This document shows, piece after piece, positions 22,058-63,723 of a stretch of DNA of 64,000 nucleotides. The notes under the pieces were generated by a model, which saw nothing but the letters and a program-made list of their open reading frames with translations, was not told where the DNA came from and did no database searches. A program made the translations under genes and the position numbers. Source of the stretch: Owenia fusiformis (taxonomy: Eukaryota; Annelida; Polychaeta; Sabellida; Oweniidae); NCBI GenBank assembly GCA_903813345.2, contig CAIIXF020000002.1:8949555-9013554 (forward strand), in the 5' to 3' direction. How positions within the stretch are numbered: the stretch's first letter is position 1; every line of letters begins with the position of its first letter.

Positions 22058-22230
22058 AGCCCTTTATCTCAATTGGTAGAGCGTCTGCCTCTAGAGCGGA
22101 AGGTCCTGGATTCGATTCCCACACTGGACGTTGAATTTGACACACTCCCTTCCGAGTCTAGTATAGGAGTTACACTCCTCGACGGTCGTGCCCAAGCATC
22201 GTTACATGCAATACTTATTGCAGATATTTA
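22058..22230 (+). mobile_element. tRNA-derived SINE-like element
   Basis: The head looks like a tRNA: A-box-like TATCTCAATTGG (22,065), B-box-like GATTCGATTCC (22,109) and an anticodon arm TCTGC/GCGGA with loop CTCTAGA, so the anticodon would be CTA. The D stem has 3 of 4 pairs and the T stem about 3 of 5. The acceptor strands pair only partly. The tail (to about 22,230) is not tRNA. This fits a SINE with a tRNA-type promoter; a working amber-decoding tRNA is unlikely. Confidence 0.55.
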
Positions 22231-23341: not shown

Positions 23342-26300
23342 CTATGTTTCATCTGTAAAACATGGGTCTACATTTACCCCACCACTGCGTCCCATGGGTC
23401 CGGGCGGCGTCCGTTTGCAATTGCATCTACCCTTACAATTCCTCAAAAAAATAAAATCTTTTCGGAACAGATCTGCAAATGGGTCGCTTTGAGGGTCTTT
23501 TTTAATTTGTCTGCACATTTTTTTCCACTGCATCCATTTTTCGCATTCTGGGTTCAACGGTCTTGATTTCTGTCCATCCGGTTTGGGTTTCGGCTCCTTA
23601 CGAGTTTTACTATTTTTCTTCTCGGCAGTTTTGTTAAGAAGCTTGAAGTAGCATTCCTCTCGGCACTTTGCTCTACAGTTTTCAACCTCTTTCTCTAAAA
23701 AAAATGATTGTTCATTAGAGTAAAACATTGTACATATATGTTAACATAACGTTTACAAATGTAGAGAAAGTGTAATGTATATAAAATTGAAAAACAATTT
23801 ATTTTTGTATTTCAAAAATTGCATAGATTCCAACAAATTTGACAATTAATTCAATCATGGTGTATTTGCGCTTAGCCCTCGTCTCAAAGAAAGATCTTGA
23901 TATTACTGAGAATATTTTCAAAGGCATGTACGAACTACGAACTTTGCAAACTTGTACTGCTGTTTTAGGTGAATTATCTGAAAAAACTTACCCTCCACCG
24001 GTTCATTTCCTTGACTCTCAACAGGGCCTGAAAAGTACAAGATACAACGTATACGAGGGGTGATCAATAAGTAATGGACGCTTTTTTACACAGATGCTTT
24101 TTATAGACCAATCCCTTCGATTTTCTTACCAGTGATACATCATTCAATTATCTATCAACTCTGAAGATTTGAAGACAGTATATACATTACATGTTGATAT
24201 ATCTTTATTTCCGTGAAGGAGGTACAGGTACCCCGGGACCGACATTTACGTCACATATTCTGAAGCTATTTTATAGATTGTTTAACATGCAATGCAGTTG
24301 AATGCAGGCTGAACAAAACAAACCATTATGGTCATGAATTAACCCATTTTGTTATGCCATAGTAATAATGTAATAATTTTGAATATTTTATCATTACTAT
24401 GTGGTATTCATGCCACATTCATTCCACAGGGCCCTCTAAATAGTTTCCATCAAGTGCTACATGTACACAATTCCTCATCCTCTTAACTCAAGATTGTGAG
24501 ACAAGGCTGAATCCATTCTCTGTCATGGTAGCAAGATGCAGTTGCACGGGTTGTTTTATTTCATCAATGTCAATAAACCTGCGTCCTTTCTCTATAGAAA
24601 TAAGTAGTATAGAAATAAACAAGTCACATATGAGCAAATCTAGACAATATGGTGCATTGGCCAAGGGCTCAATTTTGAGGTCCAGGGATATTGTTTTCTG
24701 AACATTTTGAGATCTATGGGCAGGTGCATTGTCCATATGGAGTAGGGTATTCCCTTCTCTCACCACCCCTTTCTTCCACTGAATCCTTTCTCAAATTGAC
24801 CTGCAAACCCCTTCCATACAACACTCTGACATTACAATACTTTCTGTTTATGTGTTACCAGTCAGCAACATTTTTTAAACAACACAACACTTGTTGCATA
24901 TAAAACGTTCAAATCTAACTGAAATTTACCAAACTGGCTAAAATCTGAATATGTGACGTTAATGTCGGTCCCGGGGTACCTGTACCTCCTTCACGGAAAT
25001 AAGGATATATCAATATGTATTATATATCTTGTCTTCAAATCTTCAGAATTGATAGATAATTGAATGATGTATTACTGGTAGGAAAATCAAACGGATTGGT
25101 CTATAAAAAGTATCTGTGTAAAAAAGCGTCCATTACTTATTGATCACCCCTCGTATAACTTGTTAATTTAAAAATTTGTTTTTGTACAGACTTTGGTTCA
25201 TGGTCATGCTTTGGCCACTCTGTCTCGTGCCGAATTTCACCATATTGATTAGCCTATCATCATTTGTGTTCTAATTAAAACTCGTATGTATATTATTATG
25301 TAGTTTGGTTTTCGAATATACATATTATATGTATTAAGAAAGTACCATGGATGCTACGCTTTGCATCTATTCGACTTTGCTTGTTAAAAGAGAGCTTCGT
25401 CTGATAGACTCTGCGCGCAGGGTACATGATTGCCATTCTTTGAGGTTGATTCATCTACTTTCCTTTGAAAATTTCCACAGAATAAAGAAAGCCTAGATTT
25501 TTGTATTTCTACTTTTTCTACTTGACAAACTCCATTTACCTGTCTTGCCTTTTGGACTTGTCGTATTACTGGCAGATGGAGGGTTCGTGACTTTCCCAAT
25601 GAACAAAATCACGCCGCATGTCTTGTCGTAGATGAGGAACATGAACGGGTGGTTACAGTTGACTTTGACAGGCGGAGGAACATAGCCGGATCGTCCTCCT
25701 GCAATCACGGTAACTGCAGCGGCTTCTGTCCCTAAAACATTGTTGAAAGCAAAACTATAATTCTCCAACAAAATTAAATTGTTTTATCACATAAAATGGC
25801 GAGAGCTTACAATTTGAGAATTTGGTACCACTGCTCTGATATTACGAGATATATTTTATGTGATGGGAAGTTACAACGATCATTATGGGAATGGTTATCA
25901 TATAATTATTGCCCTTGATACCCATATATCACATGATAGGCATTGTATTCACAATTCACAATTTTTATTTGGCTGCCATACACCAACATATATTTGATTT
26001 TATTATTTTTTATGATGGGGCTGTAAATGGAACATAGGCATGTAGCAAAATACCTTTTTCATTTACATCAACAAATGCCTCGTGGATGACCTTGGATACA
26101 TCTAGTCTTGGATCCTTGCTGAATCCACTGAGGTCGACAGCAGATGAGAATAGTTTTTCCATTCCCATTTCTTCCAGTATCGATGACAATTCATTTTTCC
26201 ATTTAAACTTCATCTTTGGTAGCGACACGTAAACGTCTCTCCCAGCGTTGGGCGCCTGGAGATAACGCAATGCGACTTCGAGGTTTTTATGAGTTATGCC

Positions 26301-27155
26301 TTCTATTAAATCTTTCATGCCATCTTTCTCATCTGGAAGGATTATGACCATACTCAATCTATCGCCGATGTAAGGGAGGTCCAAGAACTGGGCCTTCAGA
26401 CCAAAGTCGTGGAAATACTTGAAAGGGGCTTCTTGGTACATCATATCGACCTCGACTGTTACATTATTTTGGACATAGAAAGATTGAACATTGGTATCAC
26501 ATGGATTAAATTGCGTAACCCAATCTCCCCTGAAGTAGATAGCATTGACGAGTGCAAATACTGTCATGGCACTGATATCTCCCGGTTGAAGAACTTCTTT
26601 GATCAACTGGTTCGTTTGGTCAGCTACCCATTTATTTATAATATCGGTGGCCTGGGCTGATTGTTTAAAATCAAGTTCTTCTATCGAACCTTTATAGTAC
26701 GTTTCTATTGCTGTGATAAACCTTTGCCTTACGGCCAAGGTTTCATCCGGATACAGCTTGTTCGCTGATCTGAGCTCCGTGCCATTTGTTTTACCATACA
26801 GGTTTTTATTCAGACACGAGTACATAGAGTGAAGGCCAGAATTCTTTTGGATATCAGTAACATGTAGAACATCTTCCATTTCAGATTTGGTATCCCCATC
26901 AGCTCCCAGAAGTACCATTGCCAATGCGGTTGCTATACTCACAGGGCTGAAGAAAACATTGGTGCCGTTTTTCTCTTGTTCACTTATCTTCTTGCATATC
27001 TCAATCCCAAACTTGTTAATAGCATCGGCCAGTTCTTTTTCTTTTGAACAGTCTTCTTTACACTTTATTCTATCCTTGGTATCTCCATTACCCGCACCTA
27101 CAGTCCCTATACAGACTACAGCAGCAGTCAAAATAGCAAACCACGCTAAGGACAT
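23342..27155 (-). CDS. Serpin A: secreted serpin with cysteine-rich C-terminal tail
   Basis: Exons on the minus strand: 27,155-26,054, 25,731-25,540 and 23,694-23,342, both introns phase 1, giving about 548 residues. Exon 1 carries a signal peptide (MSLAWFAILTAAVVCIG), an extra CKEDC motif and the core motifs NVFFSPVSIATA, LVNAIYFRGDW and DVSKVIHEAFVDVNEKG. Exon 2 carries the reactive loop (GTEAAAVTVIAGGRSGY) and the end of the fold (HPFMFLIYD ... ILFIGKVTNP). The alanine-rich hinge is that of an inhibitory serpin. Arg-Ser is the likely scissile bond, predicting a trypsin-like target. Exon 3 adds about 117 basic residues with nine cysteines, unlike known serpin ends: CRAKCREEC, then DPFADLFRKDFIFLRNC, then CNCK and a last DPC. 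Serpin identity is certain. The tail's function is unknown. A mariner relic sits in intron 2. Confidence 0.93.
24054..25153. mobile_element. Decayed mariner-type (Tc1/mariner) transposon
   Basis: Inverted ends of about 200 bp begin CGAGGGGTGATCAATAAGTA and are flanked by TA on both sides, the target duplication of this superfamily. Inside, minus-strand codons around 24,488-24,766 give MDNAPAHRSQNV and a YCLDLLICDL segment, matching the HxDNAPAH and YSPDLxPxD catalytic blocks of mariner transposases. The N-terminal domain is missing, so it is not autonomous. It lies in intron 2 of serpin A. Confidence 0.9.
25350..25425 (-). repeat. Short copy of dispersed repeat A ends
   Basis: Read on the minus strand it joins the start-like block TACCCTGCGCGCAGAGTCT to the end-like block GACGAAGCTCTCTTTTAA of the repeat at 105-515, so it looks like an internally deleted copy inside intron 2 of serpin A. 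Confidence 0.55.
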
Positions 27156-28929: not shown

Positions 28930-31071
28930 ATGTCTATATTTCTCTTTTTTGTTTTGTGTCTTAGCTTCCACGAGTGGGACAAAGGAAACACAGTTGTAGG
29001 TGCTAGGGTCAGTTGCCCTGGTGACTGCGGAAAACAAAATGATCTGGTGGAGGGCATCAATGCATTCGCTGTTGATATGTACAAACACATCGAGAAACAG
29101 AATAAAACTAAAAATGTGTTTTTTAGCCCGGTAAGCATCTCGACTGCGCTATCAATATTGCTTATGGGGGCAAGGGGAGAAACAAAGTCTCAGATGGAAG
29201 ACGTATTAGGTGTCTCGTCAATAACAGGAAATGTGGATTCAATGTATACATGCCTCAATCGGAACTTGTACGGAAGAACCAAAGGAACCGAGCTCAGATC
29301 GGCGAATAAATTATATCATGATAAGACGCTCAAAGTAAAGACAGAGTTTATAAATGCCATAACGAAGTACTATGAAGGTTCGATAGAGGAACTTGATTTT
29401 AAAAAATCTACTTGGGCCACAGCCAAAATTAATTCATGGGTAGCCAAGCAAACCAACCAGTTGATCAAAGAAGTTCTTCAACCGGGAGATATCGATGCCA
29501 ATACTGTATTTGCACTCGTCAACGCTATCTACTTCAAGGGAGATTGGCTCGCGCAATTTGAAAAATCCGATACTACAACACAGCCATTTTTGTCATGCGC
29601 TGACTGTTCGACATTTGATGTTGCAATGATGTACCAAGAAGCCCCGTTCAAGCACTATCACGACAATGTATTGGAAGCCCAATTTTTAGAACTCCCATTT
29701 GTGGGTGAAAAATACTGTATGGTACTAATTGTCCCGGATGACAGATGTGGCATTGACATGTTAACAAATGATTTGACCGCAGAGAATCTTAAGCAAAGTT
29801 TGGACACGTTATTGCAAGACTACTCTGGGAGAGATGTGTACCTTTCACTTCCAAAATTAAAATTCAAATGGAAGGACGAACTTTCAAAGATACTTGAAGA
29901 TATGGGGATGGAAGATTTGTTTTCATCGAAAGTAAACCTGGGTGGGTTTAGCAATGATTCTAGGCTAGATGTTTCGAAAGTTATTCACGAGGCATTTGTG
30001 GATGTGGACGAGAAAGGTAAGCCTTTGTAAAATAAATATATAAAATGTTTTGATGGGTGAGATGTCTCCATTATTCTCGATACAATTAGTGGATATATAT
30101 AAGTAAAATGTAAAATCGTTCAACCTGCCAATTAGATTTTATTATCTACTTGGGTAACTTGGATCTATGCAACCCCCATTTATAGAATCAACAACTTTTG
30201 TCTTCGTGTATTTACATTGTTAGCAGATTAAATGCTGTGGAAACCACTAACTTTTCTCATTTGGTGCAAAATGGCTTTGTTCACTAAAAGTTGGGAATTT
30301 ATAACTTTTTGTCTATCCCTATAGCTGATTGTTTAATTTACTTTTATTCTGTTAACAGGGACTGAAGCCGCTGCAGTTACCGTGATTGCTGGAGGACGAT
30401 CAGGCTACACGCCCCCGCCTGTCAAAGTCAACTGCAACCACCCGTTCATGTTCCTAATTTACGACAAAACATGCGGCGTGATTGTATTTCTTGGGAAAGT
30501 CATGGAACCTGGAAAAGTCGAAAAGATAAATCAATTATGTAGCCTAATTTTATTCACCATTTTTAAAAATAGTCATGTTATTTTATTTCAATTCCATGAA
30601 CAGTAAAAACCTATATATCTGAACACCTCTCGATAGGACTGCTTTTAAATCGGTCGAGCTTTGCTACCTCCACAAAATGTTAGCCATTGATTAATGTTTA
30701 CTTTTCCGCCAAACATCTCATCTTTCAAATAATACATTCAAATTGATTTAGAAATATAAATATTAAATAATTGGGATTCAAAAGAATGAGCCTCCTAAAA
30801 TCTCTACTAACAGCTTAATAACTAATATTTTCTAAAAACTATTATGTGTATTTTAGCTGCTGATGCAATTGTTGAGTGTAGAGAAAACTGTAGACAGTTA
30901 TGTTTTGACAAATTGGTGAAATCAGGGAGAACAATCAAGTCGTCCAAACAGAAACTCGGTGCAAAGAAAAAATTTAAAGCGGAGTTCAAAGGAATGAGGA
31001 AATGCAAACGTGAAAGTGAAGAGTGCAAATGTAAACCATCTGGAGGAAGAAGTGGACTCAATGTGTGCTAG
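28930..31071 (+). CDS. Serpin B: secreted serpin with shorter cysteine-rich tail
   Basis: Exons 28,930-30,016, 30,359-about 30,538 and 30,857-31,071, giving about 493 residues. The first donor (GTAAGC) and both acceptors are good. The exon 2 donor is uncertain: a weak GTAGCC at 30,539 keeps phase 1 and joins to the tail. Exon 1 has a hydrophobic start (MSIFLFFVLCLSF), an added CPGDC, and core motifs NVFFSPVSISTA, LVNAIYFKGDW and DVSKVIHEAFVDVDEKG. Exon 2 repeats the loop of serpins A and C (GTEAAAVTVIAGGRSGY) and closes the fold with HPFMFLIYD. The tail of about 71 residues keeps the CRENCRQLC start and a CKRESEECKCK block, has seven cysteines, and lacks the LFRKDF-like segment of A and C. 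It is divergent to serpin A, about 1.8 kb apart. Likely trypsin-like target (Arg-Ser). Confidence 0.9.
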
Positions 31072-42314: not shown

Positions 42315-45300
42315 TCACACATCACAAGGGTCAGACTTCCCGTTACGTGTTCGTTTTTTCCATATTTTCTTGCACTTGCATCCATTTTTGCAATCTCTCA
42401 AAAACGTAAAATCTTCCCTGAATAGTTTTGCATATGGGTCAGCCATGCTTGAACGTGAAGCTTTTCTGCATTCTGTTCTAAATCCTCTGCATTCGACACA
42501 TTTGTCAGTGACTGGATTTTTCCTAGTTCTTTCACCAAGTAGCTTCGCATAACAATCATCCCGGCATCGATCCCTACAGTTTTGAAGAGTTGTCTCCACA
42601 AGCTTGTCAGAGACCACTTCGACAACTACAAAACATGAATTATTGACAAAATACTGAATGGATATCGAGGCACATCTATTAAACCATGTAAACGGCCGGC
42701 AGAATTTTAATCATGGACGTAGCCTGGCATGTGGCATGCGAAACCTCGCCAAGTTCGGCCCGCCTAATGTTAGATCCATGGCTACGCCCTTGTATGATCA
42801 AATCATGAAAAAGGGAATTCTAGATGAGGGCTAACTATACGAATAGCATTCAAATAAATATACTAAATTATCATTCAGACTTATTATCATCTATCTCAAA
42901 TCAATGTTTCTTACCCGTAGTTTATCAAACATATAATGCAATGTATTGTTCCAAAATGCAATTGCCATCCGTTGCCTGTTTAAAAAGGCTGTCAAATTAA
43001 AACAAGTCTGACACCTATTGATGTGAAAACTTGGAATTTAAGCACGAACAGACTTTTAAGGCGCATTCCATCTAGGATTTTTGGGGTGTATAACAATGCT
43101 CCCAATTGCAAGTTCGGGAGTCAAACCTTTTTGTTTGGGCGCAGTGGCATTCGATGATTGAGGATTCATAACTTTCCCGATGAACAAAATCACGCCACAT
43201 GTCTTGTCGTAGATGAGGAACATGAACGGGTGGTTACAGTTGACTTTGACAGGCGGTGGCGAGTAGCCGGATCGTCCTCCAGCAATCACGGTAACTGCAG
43301 CGGCTTCTGTCCCTGCAAATCAAATGATTCAAATAAACTATACCTCAGTCACATTTGTTGCACGGCAGCCGTACGTCAACCACAGATCAATTAAATCAGT
43401 GAATTTCTGAGGTGAGCGTAGGAAAACTACGGTCGCCTTTCAGTCTCGTATTCAGTTTTTTACAGGCCGCAGGGTAGTCGTAGAAATTATGACTCAGAGT
43501 TTCTTATTTGGTCATTTCTGCGGTCGATGCCAGACAGCTCAGAAAGGTCCAGCGATGGCCGTATATTGGGCTTGCAGTTGACTTGCGTCTGCTGTAGGAT
43601 TTGATGGGTAATGTACCTTTGGAAACAGTTTTTAAGTCAGTTTCGGTCATATATTTTGCTGTAAACACAACACAATTTGTAATACTGTTTAATGTAAGGT
43701 CATTGATACCACAGCAATTTATATTTCATTAACACTTTTTATTTGATATTACATCCTACCACTATTAATAACATTTATTTGTACTGATGTAAACAAAATA
43801 AAAATAAGCATTAACGTCTATCATCAGGAATGCAAAACTCGCAGTGCGACTGCCGTAGGAAATGTGACTGCAGATGTATCCGATCGCAGAAATTCTACAG
43901 CGAGTTTAGAAATGTTACTGGCCGGAGAAATGATAGACCGTGCGGTCGCCGTTGGAAATGTGACTGGCGTGTAAGTTGGTTATTCCAATAACAACGCAGG
44001 AATTTACTATGCATCTTACTATAAAGGACGGTGGTCTGTCTGTCATTTTGTCTGTCCAGACATCTCCTACTAGACTGTTTGACTTTAGGTCCGCATACTT
44101 GGTCAACATACTTAGTAGATCGGTGGGCATTCTACCAGATTAGAGGTCAAGGTCCATTCCAAGGTTAAAGTTCAGTATCTAGGTATTTGACCCTTAACGA
44201 CCAATTATTAGGTGACTTGAGATCAAGGTCAACTTTATGGGCCAAAGTCATTACAAGGTCAAATGTCTCTTGGTATTTGGCTTCTAGATGAATTTGGGGG
44301 CTGCTGTGACCTTTGGCGACCATGATAAAGTAACCTGGGGTCAAGGTCATTCTTAGGTCAAATGTCAATCTAGGTATTTGGTGATTTAAGGTCCTTGGGG
44401 CTGCTGTGACCTCTGGTAACCCATGATAAGTTGATCTGAGGTCAAAGCCAATGTTTATGGTCAAGGTCATCTCGAGGTTACAGGTGAATATCTAAGTTTT
44501 TGGCATTTTAAGGACCTTTGTGGCTACTGTGACCCTTAGCGACCCATGCTTAGGTGGCCTTAGGTCAAGCTCATTCCAAGGTCAAATGTCAATATCTTGG
44601 TATTTTGGTCAACTTTATGGGGCAACGTCATTCCAAGGTCAATATTTAAATATTTGGCGTGTTTAGGCTCTTGAAGGATACTGTGACCCTTGGCGACTCA
44701 TGATTAGGTGACCTGAGGTCAAAGTCAATGTTTATGGATTGGCCAAGGTCATCTCAAGGTCAAAAGTCAATATATAGGTATTTGGCGTTTCAAGGCCAAG
44801 TTCTCAATTCAAGCTTCAGTCAAGCTTAAATGAGCAATATAAAGATTTAGCATTTTATGGGGGCTGCTGTCATGTGGAGACTGCTGTGACCCTTGGTAAC
44901 CCACTCAAACGGGTAGATCGCTAGTTCAAATAATGGAGAGGTTAAGCTAACGATGTTTTTCACAACGTAACCGTGAACGCAAAGTACAAAAATTAACAAA
45001 GGAATGTATCGAGCGCTCATAGTTTTATGCGCGCTTAGTCTACTTCAGATACTCTTCAGCTTCATAGTTTCGGGTTTAGAACGGGAGATTTTGAAATTTC
45101 ACGTTGGGTCAACGGGAACCATTTTACTCGTGTCTATTGAACACTATGCTGTCAATTTTGATTTCGATGCACAGTTGAATTCTTGCTGAACACGATGATG
45201 TATGTCATGCATGATTTAGCGCCAAAAATCTTACGAAACGAGCTCGTTTAAAATGTGTATTAGAAAACCAGCTATAAAACCGCATCAATGACATACTATA

Positions 45301-48143
45301 GAATCATTACACGCTATGGTGTAGTCTAAACAAACACTGGATTTGAACGGCTATTTATATGAGAAGGCTACATGAATTTGTATATGGTCGAGTGATACGT
45401 ACAGGTTCAGTTTCGATTATATATGCAAAGCTTAACCTCTCAAATATAAGCTTGCAGTACCGGTGAGAACTCTCTATATTGCTTATTTATTGCAATTTTT
45501 AAAATCTTTAATTATAATTAGTGGAATCGATCGGTCTTGTGACGTAATGTCAACAGGTACATATCGAGAAGACACAGATTCAAAAGCCAACACTGGTGTA
45601 TCTGTGGTTTACGTCAAACACTGTTTTATCAAGGACTCGTTGGGTTTGTTGAAAGTGGTTTGACAACGTTCTCAAGATTCCAACTTTACACGGTCCAATT
45701 TACACCGTTCCGTATTGATGGAGAGGTTAAGCTAACGATGTTTTTCACAACGTAACCGTGAACGCAAAGTACAAAAATTAACAAAGGAATGTATCGAGCG
45801 CTCATAGTTTTATGCGCGCTTAGTCTACTTCAGATACTCTTTCAGCTTCAGAGTTTCGGGTTTAGAACGGGAGATTTGAAATTTGACGTTGGGTCAACGG
45901 GAACCATTTTACTCGTGTCTATTGAACACTATGCTGTCAATTTTGATTTCGATGCACAGTTGAATTCTTGCTGAACACGATGATGTATGTCATGCATGAT
46001 TTAGCGCCAAAAATTTACGAAACGAGCTCGTTTAAAATATGTATTAGAAAACCAGCTATAAAACCGCATCAATGACATACTATAGAATCATTACACGCTA
46101 TGGTGTAGTCTAAACAAACACTGGATTTGAACGGCTATTTATATGAGAAGGCTACATGAATTTGTATATGGTCGAGTGATACGTACAGGTTCAGTTTCGA
46201 TTATATATGCAAAGCTTAACCTCTCCAATGTCAACAAAATCACTAATACGGAACGGTGTAAACGAAACCGTGTTTACTTGCAGGCAAATTTTTTTCATAA
46301 AAAATGGTCAAGGGAACGATCAGATACTCCCTTCCTTGCTCTATTTGAAACCATCAATAGAATATCAAAACCAATTGTATAGGGTGTCCCAAAATATTGT
46401 ACAGACACAAACGTAGAATAACTCATCTAAAAGACAACTTTATCATAAGCATCGAAAGGTTTTACTTAATAGAGGAAAGCTTGTTTGAACATGATCACCC
46501 ATTTTTCCATGTTTAGAATTGCATTCATTTCTTTATTAATCGTGATGAAAGTCACTTAGAGTATCTCATCTAAAATGTCAAAATGTTCTGGAAAACGTTT
46601 CTATGAATCTTTAAATGCAAACTGGAAAATGAGTTCTCTTTATCATATGAAAGTTTTTTGGGATGATGAAAAAAGTTATTCCAGTTTCATTTGGGTACAC
46701 TTTTGCGACTTTTGGTTCAATAGAACATTTTGTTCAAAGACCTTTTAGGAAAATTTGACTCAGTCAAGAGTAAATAAGGAGACTGGGGTCACGTATTTTG
46801 GCAATATTGAATTATAACTCAACATTGCCAGCAAAACTTTAAAGTCTCCATATTAAAAGTGTCTTTGCCGAATTCACCTGAAATAAGAACAATTTACCTG
46901 ATTATTATAAATTCTCGTTACTTTTAAAGAAATAAATGGCATGTGTACATAATTTGGACCTTCACATCTTAACAGCAACCCTTCCTATCTTTGGAATAGG
47001 TTAGATGAAATACAGAGAGGCATTAAATACCAGAACATTACCTTCCTCGTTTACATCAACAAATGCCTCATGAATGACTTTAGATACATCTAATCTTGAA
47101 TCATTGCTGAATCCATTGAGGTCGACAGCAGATGAGAATAGTTTTTTCATCCCCATGTCTTCCAGTATCGACGACAGCTCATTTTTCCATTTAAACTTCA
47201 TCTTTGGTAGTGTCACGTAAACGTTTCTCCCAGTGTGAGGCGCCTTTAGAGTAAGTAAGGAGTCATAGAGATTATCTGCTGTGATGTCTTTTACCAAATC
47301 TTTCAAACCATTTTTCTCATCTGGAAGGATGATGACCATGCTCAGCCTATCACCGACGTAGGGGAGATCAAGAAATTGAGCCTTCAGCCGTATATTGTGG
47401 TAATATCTGAATGGGGACTCTTGGTACATCATATCAACTTTGACTGTTTCATCGTCTTGGACATAGAAAGATTGAACATTGGTATCACATGGATTAAATT
47501 GCGTAACCCAATCTCCCTTGAAGTAGATAGCATTGATGAGTGCAAATACAGTCATGGCACTGATATCTCCCGGTTGAAGAACTTCTTTGATCAACTGGTT
47601 CGTTTGGTCAGCTACCCATTTATTTATAATATCGGTGGCCTGGGCTGATTGTTTAAAATCAAGTTTTTCTATCGAACCTTTATAGTACGTTTCTATTGCT
47701 TTGATAAACTTTTCCCTTACGGCCAAGGTTTTATCCGGATACAGCTTATTCGCCGATCTAAGCTCTGTTCCTTTTGTTTTACCGTAAAGATTTTCGTTCA
47801 GACACGTGTACATAGTATGAAGCTTGGCATTTCTCTGAATATCCTCAACATGTAGGACATTTTCCATTTGTCTCTTCGTATCACCTCCTGCTCCTAAAAG
47901 TAACATTGCCAAGGCGGTTGCTACACTCACAGGGCTAAAGAAAACATTACTGTCAACTTCCTCTTGTTTATTTATCTTCTTGTATATATCTATCGCAAAA
48001 TTGTTGATTGCGCTGGTTAGATCATCGATAGCTTCACACTGTTTTGCACATTTTATTGTATCTCTAGTTCCAGCCTCACCCAGAGAAATTACCGTTACAA
48101 AGACTAATACAACAGCCAACCCGATTTTCCTCTCCTCAAACAT
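42315..48143 (-). CDS. Serpin C: secreted serpin with cysteine-rich C-terminal tail
   Basis: Minus-strand exons 48,143-47,042, 43,312-43,127 and 42,625-42,315, introns phase 1, about 532 residues. Donors are GTAATG and GTTTGA; both acceptors are clear. Exon 1 starts with a signal peptide (KIGLAVVLVFVTVISLGEAG), then CAKQC, then core motifs NVFFSPVSVATA, LINAIYFKGDW and DVSKVIHEAFVDVNEEG. Exon 2 has the loop GTEAAAVTVIAGGRSGYS and HPFMFLIYD. The 103-residue tail has ten cysteines: CRDRCRDDC, KCVEC, DPYAKLFREDFTFLRDC, CKCK and a final DPC. The tail is clearly homologous to that of serpin A. Exon 1 is the same length as in serpin A (1,102 bp) and partly almost identical in DNA. Intron 1 is 3.7 kb and filled with repeats. 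Role as in serpin A, by inference a trypsin-like protease inhibitor. Confidence 0.93.
42712..42792. repeat. Short inverted repeat with CGTAGCC/GGCTACG ends
   Basis: ATGGACGTAGCC at the left and GGCTACGCCCTTGTATG at the right lie about 80 bp apart, in intron 2 of serpin C. It is probably a remnant of the CGTAGCCAG MITE family at 5,423. Confidence 0.5.
43346..43966. mobile_element. Non-autonomous TIR element in serpin C intron 1
   Basis: The left end CAGTCACATTTG is followed by CACGGCAGCCGTACG. The right end in reverse is CAGTCACATTTCC followed by AACGGCGACCGCACGG. Length is about 620 bp with no transposase. A diverged relative lies at 31,500-31,944 downstream of serpin B, and a short one at 36,946. 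Confidence 0.75.
44090..44910. repeat. AGGTCA-rich degenerate tandem repeat
   Basis: About six imperfect units of 110-150 bp share 'gaggtcaaggtca', 'aggtcaaatgtcaatat', 'aggtatttggc' and 'ctgctgtgaccc'. The repeat lies in intron 1 of serpin C. It contains many copies of TCAAGGTCA, the binding sequence type of monomeric nuclear receptors, though repetition alone may explain this. Confidence 0.8.
44935..45440 (+). mobile_element. Duplicated 506-bp TIR element, copy 1, with 61-codon ORF
   Basis: Bounded by GGAGAGGTTAAGCT and its reverse AGCTTAACCTCT. About 95% like copy 2 at 45,720. Contains an ORF (45,004-45,189) beginning MYRALIVLCALSLLQILF, a hydrophobic signal-like start, and ending in VNFDFDAQLNSC. 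Relative to copy 2 it has a one-base loss and a one-base gain that compensate, so the ends of the protein stay in frame. No family recognised. Confidence 0.65.
45699..46262 (+). mobile_element. TIR element copy 2, with additional outer inverted repeat
   Basis: The core 45,720-46,226 matches copy 1. Outside it, TTTACACCGTTCCGTATT (45,699) and AATACGGAACGGTGTAAA (46,245) form a second perfect 18-bp inverted repeat, so the true element end may be here and copy 1 is shortened. The ORF (45,789-45,974) is 61 codons, as in copy 1. Confidence 0.65.
46263..47041. other. Remaining intron 1 of serpin C next to exon 1
   Basis: No gene. A Tc1/mariner-like end AGGGTGTCCCAAAATATTG begins near 46,382, but I found no matching second end. 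Confidence 0.4.
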
Positions 48144-49307: not shown

Positions 49308-50239
49308 TCACTTAAAAATGTTTCATTTCATAATGTAACTTTACATTGTTACAATGAAGAAATGTTTAATTTTATAATGTAACTTTACATTGTGACAATG
49401 AAGAAATGATTCATTTTATATTTGTAACTTTACATTGTGACGATGAAGAAATGGTTTATTTTATATATACTTTACATTGTGACAATGAAGAAATGATTCA
49501 TTTTATATGTAACTTTACATTGTGACGATGAAAGATTGTTCCATTTTATATATGTAACTTTACATTGTAACAATGAAGAAATGATTCCTTTTATATATAT
49601 ACTTTACATTGTGACAATGAAGAAATGTTTCATTTTATATGTAACTTTACATTGTGACGATGAAAGATTGTTCCATTTTATATATGTAACTTTATATTGT
49701 GACAATGAAGAAACGATTCATTTTATATATATACTTTACATTGTGACAATGAAGAAATGATTCATTTTATATATGTAACTTTACATTGTGACGATGAAAG
49801 ATTGTTCCATTTTATATATGTAACTTTACATTGTGACAATGAAGAAATGGTTCATTTTATATATACTTTACATTGTGACAATGAAGAAATGATTCATTTT
49901 ATATATGTAACTTTACATTGTGACGATGAAGAAATGGTTTATTTTATATATACTTTACATTGTGACAATGAAGAAATGATTCATTTTATATATGTAACTT
50001 TACATTGTGACGATGAAAGATTGTTCACTTTTTATATATGTAATTTTACATTGTGAAAATGAAGAAATGATTCATTTTATATCTGTAACTTTACATTGTG
50101 ACTAAGAAGAAATGATTCATTTTATATATGTAACTTTACATTGTGACGATGAAAGATTGTTCCATTTTATATATGTGTAATTTTACATTGTGACTAAGAA
50201 GAAACGATTCATTTTATATATTAAACTTTACATTGGGAC
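49308..50239. repeat. 44-bp minisatellite, about 20 copies
   Basis: The unit contains 'aactttacattgtgacaatg' then 'aagaaatgattcattttatat'. Two main variants, 'gacaatgaagaaatg' and 'gacgatgaaagattg', interleave, implying a higher-order pattern. Long open frames within it come from the repeat, not from a gene. Confidence 0.92.
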
Positions 50240-59100: not shown

Positions 59101-61647
59101 TCAGAGTATTGAGTGTGTTAAGTATCTTAATCTTTGCCACCAATCAACAGAACTGTGTGCGGCCTCATTCGTCTCAAAAAGTGCAAGTGGAAGGTATACA
59201 ATATAAGCCATCTTAATGAATACCTCTCTAGTGAACACATGTTCCTGGTGAACACCTCTCTTTCAAGTGAACACATGTCCCCAATGAACACCTCTCTTTC
59301 AAGTGAACACATGTCCCCAGTGAACACCTCTTTTTCAAGTGAACACATGTCCCCGGTGAACACCTCTCCTTGAAGTGAACACATGTCCCCAGTGAATACC
59401 TCTCTTTCAAGTGAACACATGTCCCCGGTGAACACCTCTCTTTCAAGTGAACAAATTCCCCAGTGAACACCTCTCTTTCAAGTGAACACATGTCTCCAGT
59501 GAACACCTCTCTTTCAAGTGAACACATGTCCCCAGTGAACACCTCTATTTCAAGTGAACACATGTCCCCGGTGAACACCCCACTCTAGTGAACATATGTT
59601 CCTGGTGAACACCTATCTTTCAAGTATACACATGTCCCCAGTGAACACCTCAACAAGACTGTTTGCGGCCTCATCCGTCTCAAAAAGTGCAAGTGGAGAG
59701 TATACAATAAAAGCCGTCTTAATGAATACCTCTCTAGTGAACACATGTCCCCAGTGAACACCTCTCTTTCAAGTGAACACATGTCCCCAGTGAACACCTC
59801 ACTCTTGTGAACACATGTCCCCAGTGAACACCTCTCTTTCAAGTGAACACATGTCCCCAGTGAACACCTCTCTTTCAAGTGAACACATGTCCCCAGTGAA
59901 CACCTCACTCTAGTGAACACATGTCCCCGGTGAACACCTCTCTTTCAAGTGAACACATGTCCCCAGTGAACACCTCTCTTTCAAGTGAACACATGTCCCC
60001 AATGAACACCTCTCTTTCAAGTAAACACATGTCCCAAATGAACACCTCTCTTTCAAGTAAACACATGTCCCAAGTGAACACCTGTCTCTCAAGTGAATAC
60101 GTGTCCCCAGTGAACACCTCTCGATGTAGTGAGCAGATGATGTCCCTTATAGAATACATGTCTCAGGAAAACATCTTACTCTAGTGAACACATGTTCCCA
60201 ATGAACACCTCTCTGTGTAGAGAGCACATGTCCTCTTTGAAAACGTGTCACTTGAGAACACCACTCTCAAGTAAACACCTATTACAGCGAGCACATGACC
60301 CTGGGGAACACCTTTTTCTTTAGTGGACGCATGTCCCTATTGGACACCTCTTTAATTTGTGAGCACGTGTCCTCATGAACACCTATTTCTAATGAACACA
60401 TGAACACATGTCCCAAGTGAACATTTTTCTTTCCGGAAAGAAAAGAAGATTGCATTCATGTTTTATTCAATGTCTAACATTTTCTTGATAATGTTTACTT
60501 TCAGCGAATACAGGAATATGTGCAGCTACTTGGAGATTTTCAAAGGAGGTAACTGTCCCAGGGTTCTTCAAGATCAGGGTCTCCCTTGTACATGCCCAGT
60601 GCAGCCTGGGACATACAAAGTAAAAGATGTCAATTTGAAAATACCCAAACTAGAAGGCATTTCATCTCTTTTAGCACAGGTAAATACTTTATCATTAATT
60701 ACACTCCCCTGAACAACTTTAGCAATCGGAAGTCGTTTTAGGACTAGGCCTATATGTTTTAGTCTGTTTATCTTTTGCAAACTTTACACATTTACCAAAA
60801 TTTGTAATAAACATCTAGCCTACTTAACTATATCAAAATTGAGGGGCAAAATTAAGATGAAAATATAAACAGGCGTTCACGCGTTATTCAATGTGGAATC
60901 TGGTTGTTAAACTTTTGGAGGGGAGTGTAAATATCAAATGATTGATGTTTGACATGTCCCCTTTTGGGTGGTCAGATATCAATCGTTTATTTGTTTTTTA
61001 TTTAGATAATATGAATGCGATATGACTTTTCCTGATTTGAGAAGCAGCATGCATAGGGGTGGGAGCTAGACCGTAGCACGATATACTACTTCATTTTTAA
61101 AATGTATATACACGTAGTGACATCTATCAACCGAATAAGAATCTATTTTATTATAAGCAGCTGTAATCTGAACGTTGGGGTATGGTTTTAATGGAGAACG
61201 TCAAGCTACTCGTTTTAAGGAAATGCGTAGAATTAAAGTACTGTAGGGATTAGTCCCCCGACTTCGATAAGAAAATAGTTAGGTCCCCGAAAAAAACTAA
61301 TAGAGAGGGAACAAAAATCACTAGGGGTTACGTCGACATATATGTTCTACTAAAGCTCTGACTAAGGACGTGTCGCTAAACCTCCCCAGTATCTTCTCGC
61401 TCTTTTTCACTAGATCAATTTTTATTTGAGATGTTTTTTAGAATCAAGTGGATTGTTGATATGATACTTTAAAGGCCATGATCTAACTAATTGCTTTCAT
61501 TTAAGTTACGAACGTATATATTTTCAGGGAGAGTACGAAATTACAGCAAAGTTAATGGATGACGTCACGCGGGGCGAACTCGGCTGCATCAAGATTAAAT
61601 TTACTATGAAAAGAAGAAAGAAGAAATCAGGATGGTTTTTCAAATAA
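53146..61647 (+). CDS. Ganglioside GM2 activator-like lipid-binding protein
   Basis: Four exons: 53,146-53,251, 57,731-57,935, 60,505-60,679 and 61,528-61,647, spliced in phases 1, 2 and 0 with donors GTAAGG, GTAAGT and GTAAAT. The product is 201 residues (human GM2A is 193). Exon 1 encodes a signal peptide (MNLLHCIALVILEIIL), a basic stretch RKRHSRAHK, and YSDC, matching the first conserved cysteine. The rest follows GM2A order: ADPLPIVSPGKLRVS, LPFLLPCINGIVGTC, a CPRVLQDQGLPCTCPVQPGT block, and LGCIKIKF. All eight cysteines of the four disulfides are present. The family forms a lipid-binding beta cup that presents glycolipids, classically to lysosomal hexosaminidase; invertebrate members may bind other lipids. 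Odd points are the basic KRRKKKSGWFFK ending and a furin-like RKRHSR after the signal. The identification is firm. Confidence 0.94.
54361..54522. mobile_element. MITE with GTCGATCAATAAGTTCTGAG inverted ends
   Basis: About 160 bp in intron 1 of the GM2-activator-like gene. Both ends contain GTCGATCAATAAGTTCTGAG followed by AAA, as exact reverse complements. No coding sequence. The end resembles the mariner-type end at 24,054 (GATCAATAAGT). Confidence 0.85.
55005..55075. repeat. Three short copies of a GGCGTAATTTGACG motif
   Basis: Close-spaced copies of 'ggcgtaatttgacg' (the third diverged) in intron 1 of the GM2-activator-like gene. Confidence 0.6.
56184..56240. repeat. Three ATGACACCTGT copies (E-box cluster)
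   Basis: 'atgacacctgt' occurs three times at about 22-26 bp spacing in intron 1 of the GM2-activator-like gene. CACCTG is the core bound by Snail/E-protein-type factors; whether it functions here is unknown. Confidence 0.5.
59222..60430. repeat. 36-bp minisatellite with higher-order duplication
   Basis: About 30 copies of a 36-bp unit containing 'gtgaacacatgtccccagtg' and 'aacacctctctttcaa', in intron 2 of the GM2-activator-like gene. Because 36 is divisible by three, frames on both strands stay open (SSEHMSPVNTSL on plus, MCSLEREVFTGD on minus). The leading non-repeat piece at about 59,150-59,225 ('gcggcctcat' to 'aatacctctctagtg') recurs at 59,660-59,740, so a larger block was duplicated. 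Copies decay after 60,120. Confidence 0.93.
60700..60929. mobile_element. MITE with TACACTCCCC ends
   Basis: The left end TACACTCCCCTGAACAACTT and the right end, in reverse TACACTCCCCTCCAAAAGTT, lie at TA sites 230 bp apart, in intron 3 of the GM2-activator-like gene. Related single ends appear at 14,567 and 62,218, and a long fold-back version at 38,774. Confidence 0.8.
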
Positions 61648-62927: not shown

Positions 62928-63556
62928 TTACAGACAACCCGCGGCTTGGTCGAGGAACCCAAGAATCCTCCGAGTGGCAAATGGATCGTCATGATAGAAT
63001 ATCAATTTTTCCCCAGTAAATGGATCCTCTGAAACAACGTTTTCAATTTCATTCTCAATACCGTCAATGATTTTGAACAACCCTCGATTACTGGTCAGCA
63101 CTATCCATATAACAACACCACCGTTGTCACGTATTGACTTGGCAGCTCTAATCGTAGCTTTGCGGTACCTCATGGGATAAGTCCTTCCATCTCCGAAGAA
63201 AATAGCAACATCGCGATAAATTTTGTCGTCTCTGTCGTTCGGTGTTGCCAAGGTAGCAATTGTTTTATTGAACGCAATATCGGTCCTCGTTCTGCATCCG
63301 TCAACGGCATCACGGACGGCTTTAAGATCAGATAACAGCTTTACAACATTGGCTGGATTACCGTCCGGTTCGCCGGATGAGAAGTCGAATGAATCGACAA
63401 CATCTACGTTGTAGCTGAACCCGCTAATCCTTGAGCCTTTGGAGGAGTCGAGTGCCAGATTCATACTAATACCCTTGGCAATGTCCACCGCCGCCGTGAT
63501 ATTTGTCGCGTCAATCGAACACGATGTATCAAATGAAAAGACAATGTCGGCGCACA
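62928..63556 (-). CDS. VWA-domain protein, last exon (partial gene)
   Basis: A 629-bp terminal exon on the minus strand. The acceptor (tgtttttCAG) ends at 63,557 and translation enters in phase 1, which is usual for exon-shuffled extracellular domains. The roughly 209 residues form one von Willebrand factor A domain: ADIVFSFDTSCSID carries the DxSxS metal-site motif, then SRISGFSYNVDVVDSFDF, RTDIAFNKTIATL, and the strand-and-helix core DVAIFFGDGRTY and GGVVIWIVLTS. The end at GCL brings the C-terminal cysteine typical of such domains. Upstream exons lie beyond 64,000. The parent could be a collagen-like, matrilin-like or multi-VWA secreted protein; the window cannot tell. Probably binds a divalent cation and an extracellular partner. 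Confidence 0.88.
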
Positions 63557-63723
63557 CTGAAAAACATGACATCGACTTTAAGGCGACGCTATATTAAATA
63601 ATAAGTACAAAAAATGACTGCCATATTTTTTTGATAAAGACACATGTTTTTAAAATCTGTTTACCTTGTATATGAATTGTGTATCTTGACTAATGAAACA
63701 TGTCAAAGTTAACATCACACATA

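What the first reader, a model, noticed from the sequence alone, without database searches (positions are those of the whole stretch)
23342..23694. Serpins fused to an unknown basic cysteine-rich C-terminal module
All three serpin genes carry, after the normal end of the fold, a separate exon whose product starts C-R-x2-C-R-x2-C-[YF]-x-K-L, contains in A and C a DP(F/Y)A-LFR-DF-FLR-C segment and CxC, and ends near a lone cysteine. The same module occurs at 30,857-31,071 and 42,315-42,625. Serpin C-terminal extensions are known (for example in alpha2-antiplasmin) but are not cysteine-rich modules like this one. The high Lys/Arg content suggests binding to polyanions, matrix or a partner protein (inference).
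Basis: partly seen in the sequence, partly recalled or inferred. Interest (0 to 1): 0.85.

Follow-up and report, generated by a model that had tools for sequence, protein, structure and literature searches.

The report
Serpins with cysteine-rich helical-hairpin tails
Three neighbouring protease-inhibitor (serpin) genes are each followed by an extra, basic, cysteine-rich exon that probably makes a disulfide-stapled pair of helices, and most of the other serpins examined in this genome have a cysteine-rich tail of the same or another kind, which suggests one inhibitor head fitted with different address tags.

Summary
Each of the three window serpins has a downstream exon coding for a basic, Cys-rich tail. 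Tail codons are under purifying selection (pS 0.67-0.84, pN 0.40-0.47). Pfam and a PDB profile search give no match. The window tails belong to an 11-gene kind whose fullest form is CX3CX3CX3C, a loop, then CX3CX3CX3C. This reads as an antiparallel helical hairpin stapled by disulfides. The closest shape is plant Ole e 6 and the alpha-hairpinins, by analogy and not by homology. Most likely these are secreted, Arg-P1 inhibitors of trypsin-like proteases whose tail docks the serpin at its site, like the tail of alpha2-antiplasmin. Nearly identical loops with divergent tails fit that reading, but binding is inferred. A heparin-motif test was negative, and both structure models are poor. Gene B lacks a good splice donor, so its joining is uncertain. 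No transcripts and no second species could be examined.

The parts
26054..27155 (-). Serpin A exon 1: hydrophobic N-terminus (by eye) and most of the serpin fold
   Evidence: Pfam Serpin E 8e-100; donor AAAAAG|GTATTT, phase 1, score 0.6
25540..25731 (-). Serpin A exon 2: hinge, reactive loop GTEAAAVTVIAGGR|SG, end of the fold, linker
   Evidence: Pfam Serpin E 7e-12; acceptor -0.3 and donor 4.5, phase 1-1
23992..24027 (-). Proposed 36-nt micro-exon of serpin A (GPVESQGNEPVE), phase 1-1
   Evidence: Best in-frame acceptor/donor pair of the intron (score 12.1, next 5.4); 0 of 300 shuffled introns reach it, best 11.3. No counterpart found in B or C
23342..23694 (-). Serpin A tail exon with stop codon: 9 Cys
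   Evidence: Open frame with phase-1 acceptor TTTTTTTTAG|AG, score -0.8; purifying selection against C and B
28930..30016 (+). Serpin B exon 1
   Evidence: Pfam Serpin E 5.5e-97; donor GAAAG|GTAAGC, score 7.1
30359..30606 (+). Serpin B exon 2: reactive loop; open to a stop at 30606, no convincing donor to the tail
   Evidence: Pfam Serpin E 1.7e-11; donor scan
30857..31071 (+). Serpin B tail exon with stop codon: 7 Cys, shortest of the three, second Cys row degenerate
   Evidence: Phase-1 acceptor GTATTTTAG|CT, score -1.8; pS 0.84 against pN 0.43-0.47
47042..48143 (-). Serpin C exon 1
   Evidence: Pfam Serpin E 7.5e-103; donor GAGGAAG|GTAATG, score 3.0
43127..43312 (-). Serpin C exon 2: reactive loop and linker
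   Evidence: Pfam Serpin E 1e-12; phase-1 donor AAAAAG|GTTTGA, weak, score -1.3
42315..42625 (-). Serpin C tail exon with stop codon: 10 Cys; AlphaFold2 gives its longest helices at tail residues 5-36 and 64-81
   Evidence: phase-1 acceptor score -1.6; model m3c20029b6316, mean pLDDT 57.7, pTM 0.40

Best explanation
Genes A and C, and probably B, encode secreted inhibitory serpins with Arg at P1 (...AGGR|SG...), hence suicide inhibitors of trypsin-like serine proteases. After the fold, a phase-1 exon adds a basic tail that folds as an antiparallel helical hairpin. Each helix carries Cys residues four apart, and the two rows are stapled together by disulfides. The tail is a docking or address module: it holds the serpin on a partner (a protease exosite, a matrix or tube component, or a cell-surface ligand), so that one reactive loop can be used at different sites. 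Shown from sequence: the open tail frames, the Cys pattern, the coding constraint, the link to the serpin tree. Inferred: the splicing, the hairpin (poor models plus Cys spacing), the disulfide pairing, secretion, the P1 assignment and the docking role.
For: Inhibitory hinge GTEAAAVT and an Arg-Ser loop. The loop GTEAAAVTVIAGGRSG is the same in A, B, C and in paralogues with other tail kinds (L007, L008, L010). Within the window the loop exons are 90% identical in protein with dS 0.39-0.46, while the tails are 36-41% identical with dS 1.6 or saturated. Each of five tail kinds forms one group on a 33-gene serpin tree, five unlabelled genes not counted (5 changes for six groups, the least possible; shuffled mean 15.5, as low in 0 of 200); kind I has support 98/95. 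Window tails against seven other kind-I tails: probability 92%, E 6.5e-7 over 54 columns. Cys gaps 3,3,3-n-3,3,3 in L014 (two genes) and L005. The best open acceptor is phase 1 in 29 of 32 tail frames, and the best donor in 21 of 25 loop exons. Kind-II exons repeat in tandem with phase-1 acceptors and donors, three in L010 and two in L013, as expected of a folding unit. AlphaFold2 helices in C and A. Of 11 kind-I tails, 5 were used as tblastn queries of the whole genome; all confident matches lie beside serpins, leaving three scraps with internal stops at E 0.23-0.94.
Against: Both structure models are poor (mean pLDDT 57.7 and 43.5). The A and C tails have a long middle part and a CX3CXC end that do not fit a simple four-rung ladder, and B lacks CX3C in its second row. 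No heparin-type motif excess. No ligand, transcript or protein evidence. Splice sites of the window tails are modest: C has a higher-scoring phase-0 acceptor and B no good donor. Faster tail change could be relaxed constraint rather than retargeting, and the low loop-exon dS could be passive gene conversion; between A and C core dS is also low (0.49). Not all kind-I loops are alike: L014, L023 and L006 differ.
Confidence: 0.48

Rival explanations
1. The tail is a structural part of the serpin: its Cys pair with Cys of the core or with another molecule, so it stabilises the metastable fold or links serpins into oligomers or into a matrix.
For: Counted cysteines (core after residue 25, loop exon, tail) come to 16 in each of A (5+2+9), B (7+2+7) and C (4+2+10), although the shares differ (counted after the fact, n=3). 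Thermopin's C-terminal tail packs on the fold, and aeropin has a tail and two disulfides (PMC8233489 passages).
Against: Kind-II tails repeat in tandem as if independent; the eight kind-I tails outside the window have 8 Cys each, enough to pair within themselves.
Confidence: 0.2
2. The tail is a defence peptide: a basic disulfide hairpin that kills microbes or blocks a channel, carried on the serpin or released by cleavage of the linker.
For: Basic charge and Cys-rich hairpin pattern; plant alpha-hairpinins with CX3C...CX3C are antimicrobial, and scorpion and cone-snail peptides share the motif (PMC7191063 passages). Long linkers precede several tails.
Against: Tail kinds follow the serpin tree, and the 5 kind-I tails used as queries gave no confident match away from serpins. 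I did not look for processing sites.
Confidence: 0.17
3. The tail is a second protease inhibitor, like the trypsin-inhibiting alpha-hairpinins, so the protein has two heads.
For: Some alpha-hairpinins inhibit trypsin through an Arg between the two CX3C motifs (PMC7191063 passages); the tails have many Arg/Lys there.
Against: The distance between the Cys rows varies widely (8 to 41 residues in the eight other kind-I tails, counting an extra Cys inside three of them, and more in A and C), and no residue there is invariant in the seven aligned.
Confidence: 0.06
4. The tails are chance open frames or dead exons not joined to the serpins.
For: No transcript could be read; weak donor in C, a competing phase-0 acceptor in C, and no good donor in B.
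Against: Pattern restricted to the gene strand, phase-1 acceptors in 29 of 32 tail frames, purifying selection, agreement with the serpin tree.
Confidence: 0.06

Closest known systems
alpha2-antiplasmin (SERPINF2)
   Same: Secreted serpin cleaved after Arg, with a C-terminal tail of about 55 residues whose Lys residues make the first contact with the target (plasmin kringles) (PMC7785519 passages)
   Different: The passages do not describe its tail as a Cys-rich module; the tails here have 7-10 Cys and sit on a separate exon
Neuroserpin, pancpin and ER-retained serpins
   Same: C-terminal extensions, in neuroserpin and the ER serpins deciding where the serpin goes (PMC4476131 passages)
   Different: Short linear signals such as HDFEEL or KDEL, not folded domains
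Thermopin and aeropin
   Same: C-terminal tails; aeropin also has two extra disulfides (PMC8233489 passages)
   Different: Prokaryotic; thermopin's tail packs on the fold; no Cys-ladder module is described in the passages
Ole e 6 and plant alpha-hairpinins
   Same: Two antiparallel helices with six Cys (Ole e 6; PMC8198727 passages) or CX3C...CX3C helix-loop-helix (alpha-hairpinins; PMC7191063 passages)
   Different: Plant peptides; Ole e 6 is acidic, these tails are basic; no tail scanned matched Pfam Ole_e_6
Dockerin-bearing serpins of cellulosomes
   Same: Serpin plus a docking module (recalled; one search is only a listing of papers that name both)
   Different: Microbial and unrelated in sequence (recalled)

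Membership tests
Inhibitory serpin (PF00079) | Serpin fold by profile over both exons | tested here: met
   E 8e-100 / 7e-12 (A), 5.5e-97 / 1.7e-11 (B), 7.5e-103 / 1e-12 (C)
Inhibitory serpin (PF00079) | Hinge with small residues (GTEAAA) and a plausible P1 | tested here: met
   GTEAAAVTVIAGGRSG in all three
Inhibitory serpin (PF00079) | Inhibits a protease | not testable with these tools
   Needs an assay
alpha2-antiplasmin-type tailed serpin | C-terminal extension beyond the fold in an inhibitory Arg-P1 serpin | tested here: inconclusive
   Coding tail frames that can be joined in phase in A and C, with modest sites; B uncertain; no transcript
alpha2-antiplasmin-type tailed serpin | Tail binds kringles of the target | not testable with these tools
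   Target unknown
Alpha-hairpinin (XnC1X3C2XnC3X3C4Xn) | Two CX3C motifs with four Cys in all | tested here: not met
   CX3C on both sides in 10 of 11 kind-I tails (not B), but all 11 have 7-10 Cys. A kind-V tail (L008) comes nearest
Ole e 6 (PF09253) | Profile match | tested here: not met
   No match of any tail scanned at E<=10; a chance-level match (E 0.086) falls on the N-terminal part of serpin A, not on the tail
Ole e 6 (PF09253) | Antiparallel helical hairpin with disulfides | tested here: inconclusive
   Low-confidence helices
VWC domain (PF00093) | Profile match of the window tails | tested here: not met
   None for A, B, C; one kind-IV tail (L016) comes near the cut-off (25.7 against 27.6 bits), the two L021 tails give no match

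The most novel reading that the evidence does not exclude
This lineage runs a modular serpin system: a serpin head (in the Arg-P1 branch often with a nearly constant reactive loop) is joined through a phase-1 intron to one of several Cys-rich address domains. One of them, a cysteine-ladder helical hairpin (CX3CX3CX3C-loop-CX3CX3CX3C), would be an undescribed domain family and decide where each inhibitor acts.
Probability: 0.35. Interest if true: 0.72.

Novelty: new variant of a known kind. Interest (0 to 1): 0.57.

Why it matters
Serpins are usually treated as single-domain proteins whose specificity sits in the reactive loop. A genome in which 25 of 33 serpins placed on a tree have a Cys-rich final exon, in kinds that track the tree, would show targeting by different tails on a shared head. 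It would also supply a small, dense disulfide hairpin domain for which Pfam and PDB searches gave no match here. It is directly testable by transcript reads and by expressing the tail.

Tried and rejected
Heparin-type motifs (Cardin-Weintraub patterns, recalled): 5 against a shuffle mean of 4.3, so no support. PDB by sequence and by profile of the window tails and of seven related tails: nothing, or chance-level. NCBIfam at E<=1: one chance-level match. Bacterial/archaeal and viral collections with the window profile: no relative confirmed; these are not animal collections, so they say nothing on distribution among animals. The CSalpha-beta defensin idea (CX3C plus CXC) was considered and dropped, because related tails have CX3C rows on both sides and no strand is predicted in C. 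Fold search was not run, since the models are too poor.

Tail kinds were assigned by eye before the first tree. Between and I moved L028 to kind III, after a tail was seen there, and took L017 and L018 out of kind IV, because I had labelled them without seeing a tail. L009, L025 and L031 were left unlabelled, and L029 (two genes) and L032 were made a group of their own. All groups needed 7 changes and 5. Kind III's support (94/92) is below the starred level, and L006, L023, L030, L032 and L025 sit on long branches. L021 was put in kind IV by eye; neither Pfam nor my VWC pattern matches it. Serpin places that were not fetched or not placed (for example C9:23.18, C12:15.53, C7:27.89, C1:25.01, C2:29.63 and 32.65, C4:7.88 and C8:10.62 Mb, C3:31.039 Mb, the C483 copies, and the gene behind L015) are not in the count of 33. 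The Fisher numbers used site counts that I had estimated; one search replaces them. In one search the L011a rows were read in a wrong frame and are not used.

Full report
What is there. The window is C2:8949555-9013554 of a 498 Mb eukaryotic genome in 525 contigs. The size and the large contigs seen (31.9-62.2 Mb) fit the annelid Owenia fusiformis, described as 505.8 Mb with 12 chromosome-scale scaffolds (PMC9977687, passages seen). That identification is an inference and nothing below depends on it. Three serpin genes lie at 23-27 kb (A, minus), 29-31 kb (B, plus) and 42-48 kb (C, minus). Each has a first exon with most of the fold, a second exon with the reactive loop and the end of the fold, and a downstream open frame coding for the tail. 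Pfam sees serpin in both exons of each gene and nothing in the tails at E<=10.

Is the tail real. The three tails share CRxxCRxxC[YF]xKL; A and C also share the DP[FY]A-LFR-DF-FLR-C stretch. Their codons carry more synonymous than non-synonymous change per site in all three pairs (p 3e-4, 2e-6, 1e-5), so they are or were coding. Phase-1 joins are possible in A and C. By a simple recalled site table the sites are modest: tail acceptors -0.8 (A), -1.8 (B), -1.6 (C), with an open phase-0 acceptor at 1.3 a little upstream in C, and a donor of -1.3 in C. In A a 36-nt micro-exon has the best splice-site pair of its intron (12.1, next 5.4); 0 of 300 shuffled introns reach it, the best at 11.3. B and C show no such exon. 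B is the weak point: its second exon has no convincing GT donor before the stop. B's tail still shows constraint against A and C, so it may have lost its link recently or use an unusual donor. No transcripts were available.

More than three genes. One search lists 60 exon-level serpin matches, roughly 40 places. I fetched 28 loci around the closer ones and placed 33 genes, counting A-C, on a tree. A Cys-rich frame follows the loop exon on the same strand in 25 of these 33. Kind I (11 genes, including A-C) has CX3C rows. Kind II (2 genes) has tandem exons of about 12 Cys each. Kind III (6) has C-x5-C...CCGC followed by DP. Kind IV (4) is VWC-like: one scores just under the Pfam cut-off, L021 is placed by eye only. 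Kind V (2) has CX3C-loop-CX3C. L009 has a shorter CX3C pair with a phase-1 acceptor and is not counted. In three genes (L029 twice, L032) the loop is in the core exon and the frame ends just after the fold. In four (L017, L018, L025, L031) I found no tail in the fetched stretch. A kind-III tail also follows the gene in L015, which is not on the tree.

Controls. The kind-I pattern, written after seeing the tails, matches 7 frames on the gene strand and 0 on the other strand of the 28 loci, and only A, B and C in the window. A looser twin-CX3C pattern with K+R of at least 20% matches 14 on the gene strand and 0 on the other. In the window it matches one frame that overlaps A's loop exon in another frame, which I take as chance, and not A, B or C themselves. 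Patterns for kinds III and IV match 7 and 3 on the gene strand and 0 elsewhere. The best open acceptor before the module is phase 1 in 29 of 32 tail frames, the exceptions being C, L021b and the fourth frame of L010. The best donor after the fold is phase 1 in 21 of 25 loop exons, the exceptions being B, L011, L014b and L027; L022's is phase 1 but very poor.

Evolution. Tail kinds are tied to the serpin tree: 5 changes for six groups, the least possible, against a mean of 15.5 in shuffles, with five genes unlabelled. Kind I is one group with support 98/95; kinds I, II and V plus L009 form a group at 100/99. A profile of the window tails matches a profile of seven other kind-I tails with probability 92% and E 6.5e-7 over 54 columns, which is moderate support for homology. 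Within the window the loop exons are 90% identical with dS 0.39-0.46, although core dS between B and the others is 2.0-2.4 and tail dS is 1.6 or saturated. A and C are also close in the core (dS 0.49). Homogenisation therefore acted on the loop exon, and between A and C on the core, but not on the tails. By tblastn, the five kind-I tails used as queries (of 11) and one kind-II tail give confident matches only beside serpins. Kind III is different: weaker matches lie in gene arrays on C7 and C6. In the one of these looked at closely (L034) the frame follows a VWA domain, so that module is probably shared with another family.

Shape. In L014 (two genes) and L005 the Cys gaps are 3,3,3-n-3,3,3; L011 and L012 have 3,3 and then 3,4,3; L006 has 3,4,4 and then 3,3,4; the window tails keep 3,3 and then 3,1 (A, C) or 6,1 (B). 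Rows of Cys four apart are what two helices stapled face to face would need. AlphaFold2 gives the C tail four helices, the longest at 5-36 and 64-81 (pLDDT 70-80 in part, mean 57.7, pTM 0.40), and the A tail three helices at still lower confidence (mean 43.5, pTM 0.32). The hairpin is therefore a reasoned inference and not a result. The nearest known shapes are Ole e 6, two antiparallel helices with six Cys (PMC8198727 passages), and alpha-hairpinins (PMC7191063 passages). Neither is a sequence match.

Function. The heads look inhibitory with Arg P1 (the P1 is read by eye). The tail of alpha2-antiplasmin, cleaved by plasmin after Arg, makes the first contact with plasmin (PMC7785519 passages), and other serpins use C-terminal extensions for sorting (PMC4476131 passages) or stability (PMC8233489 passages). 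A shared loop on divergent, basic, disulfide-rich tails fits docking best. Polyanion binding in particular is not supported by motif counts (5 against 4.3). Stabilisation or cross-linking through the Cys (16 in each of A, B and C by my count) and a defence peptide remain open.

Print. Searches for serpins with such tails (listings seen, passages of five serpin or annelid papers looked up, the last without any mention of serpins) gave no description of Cys-rich hairpin tails on serpins. The library lacks most subscription journals, so this is not proof of absence. The wasp paper (PMC5691223) describes a Cys-rich C-terminal extension, but on an alpha2-macroglobulin-type inhibitor. The tubeworm Paraescarpia has expanded, tandem serpins (PMC8476170 passages); whether they bear tails is not stated in the passages seen.

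Noticed in passing
window 23992-24027 (-): A likely 36-nt phase-1 micro-exon in gene A's last intron, not seen in B or C; could be spliced alternatively.
   Followed up: partly
window about 24207-25000: By eye: a mariner-like element remnant (transposase-like frame at 24488-24790, minus) with inverted ends, lying in the last intron of serpin A.
   Followed up: no
L022, L027, L028: Two reactive-loop frames in tandem in one serpin gene, as in genes with alternative reactive loops.
   Followed up: no
L033 4708-4917 (-), L034 3473-3682 (+): The kind-III serpin tail module (CCGCPxMFxDPxxKV) also occurs in gene arrays on C7 and C6; in L034 downstream of a VWA domain.
   Followed up: partly
window 62931-63593 (-): A VWA-domain frame (Pfam E 1.1e-6) near the window's end, perhaps related to the VWA genes above.
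   Followed up: partly
G000 C483:224387-239216 and C2:17804236-17817495: C483 closely repeats the C2:17.8 Mb serpin cluster, probably the other haplotype left unplaced.
   Followed up: no
L010 4004-6671 (-), L013 2846-4299 (+): Tandem kind-II tail exons, phase 1-1, that would add three (perhaps four) and two Cys-rich modules to one serpin.
   Followed up: partly
window 49709-50056 and 59127-60162: Open frames made of short repeated peptides; look like minisatellites.
   Followed up: no
window about 22058-22130 (+): By eye: a tRNA-like stretch (TTGGTAGAGCG ... GATTCGATTCC), perhaps a SINE.
   Followed up: no
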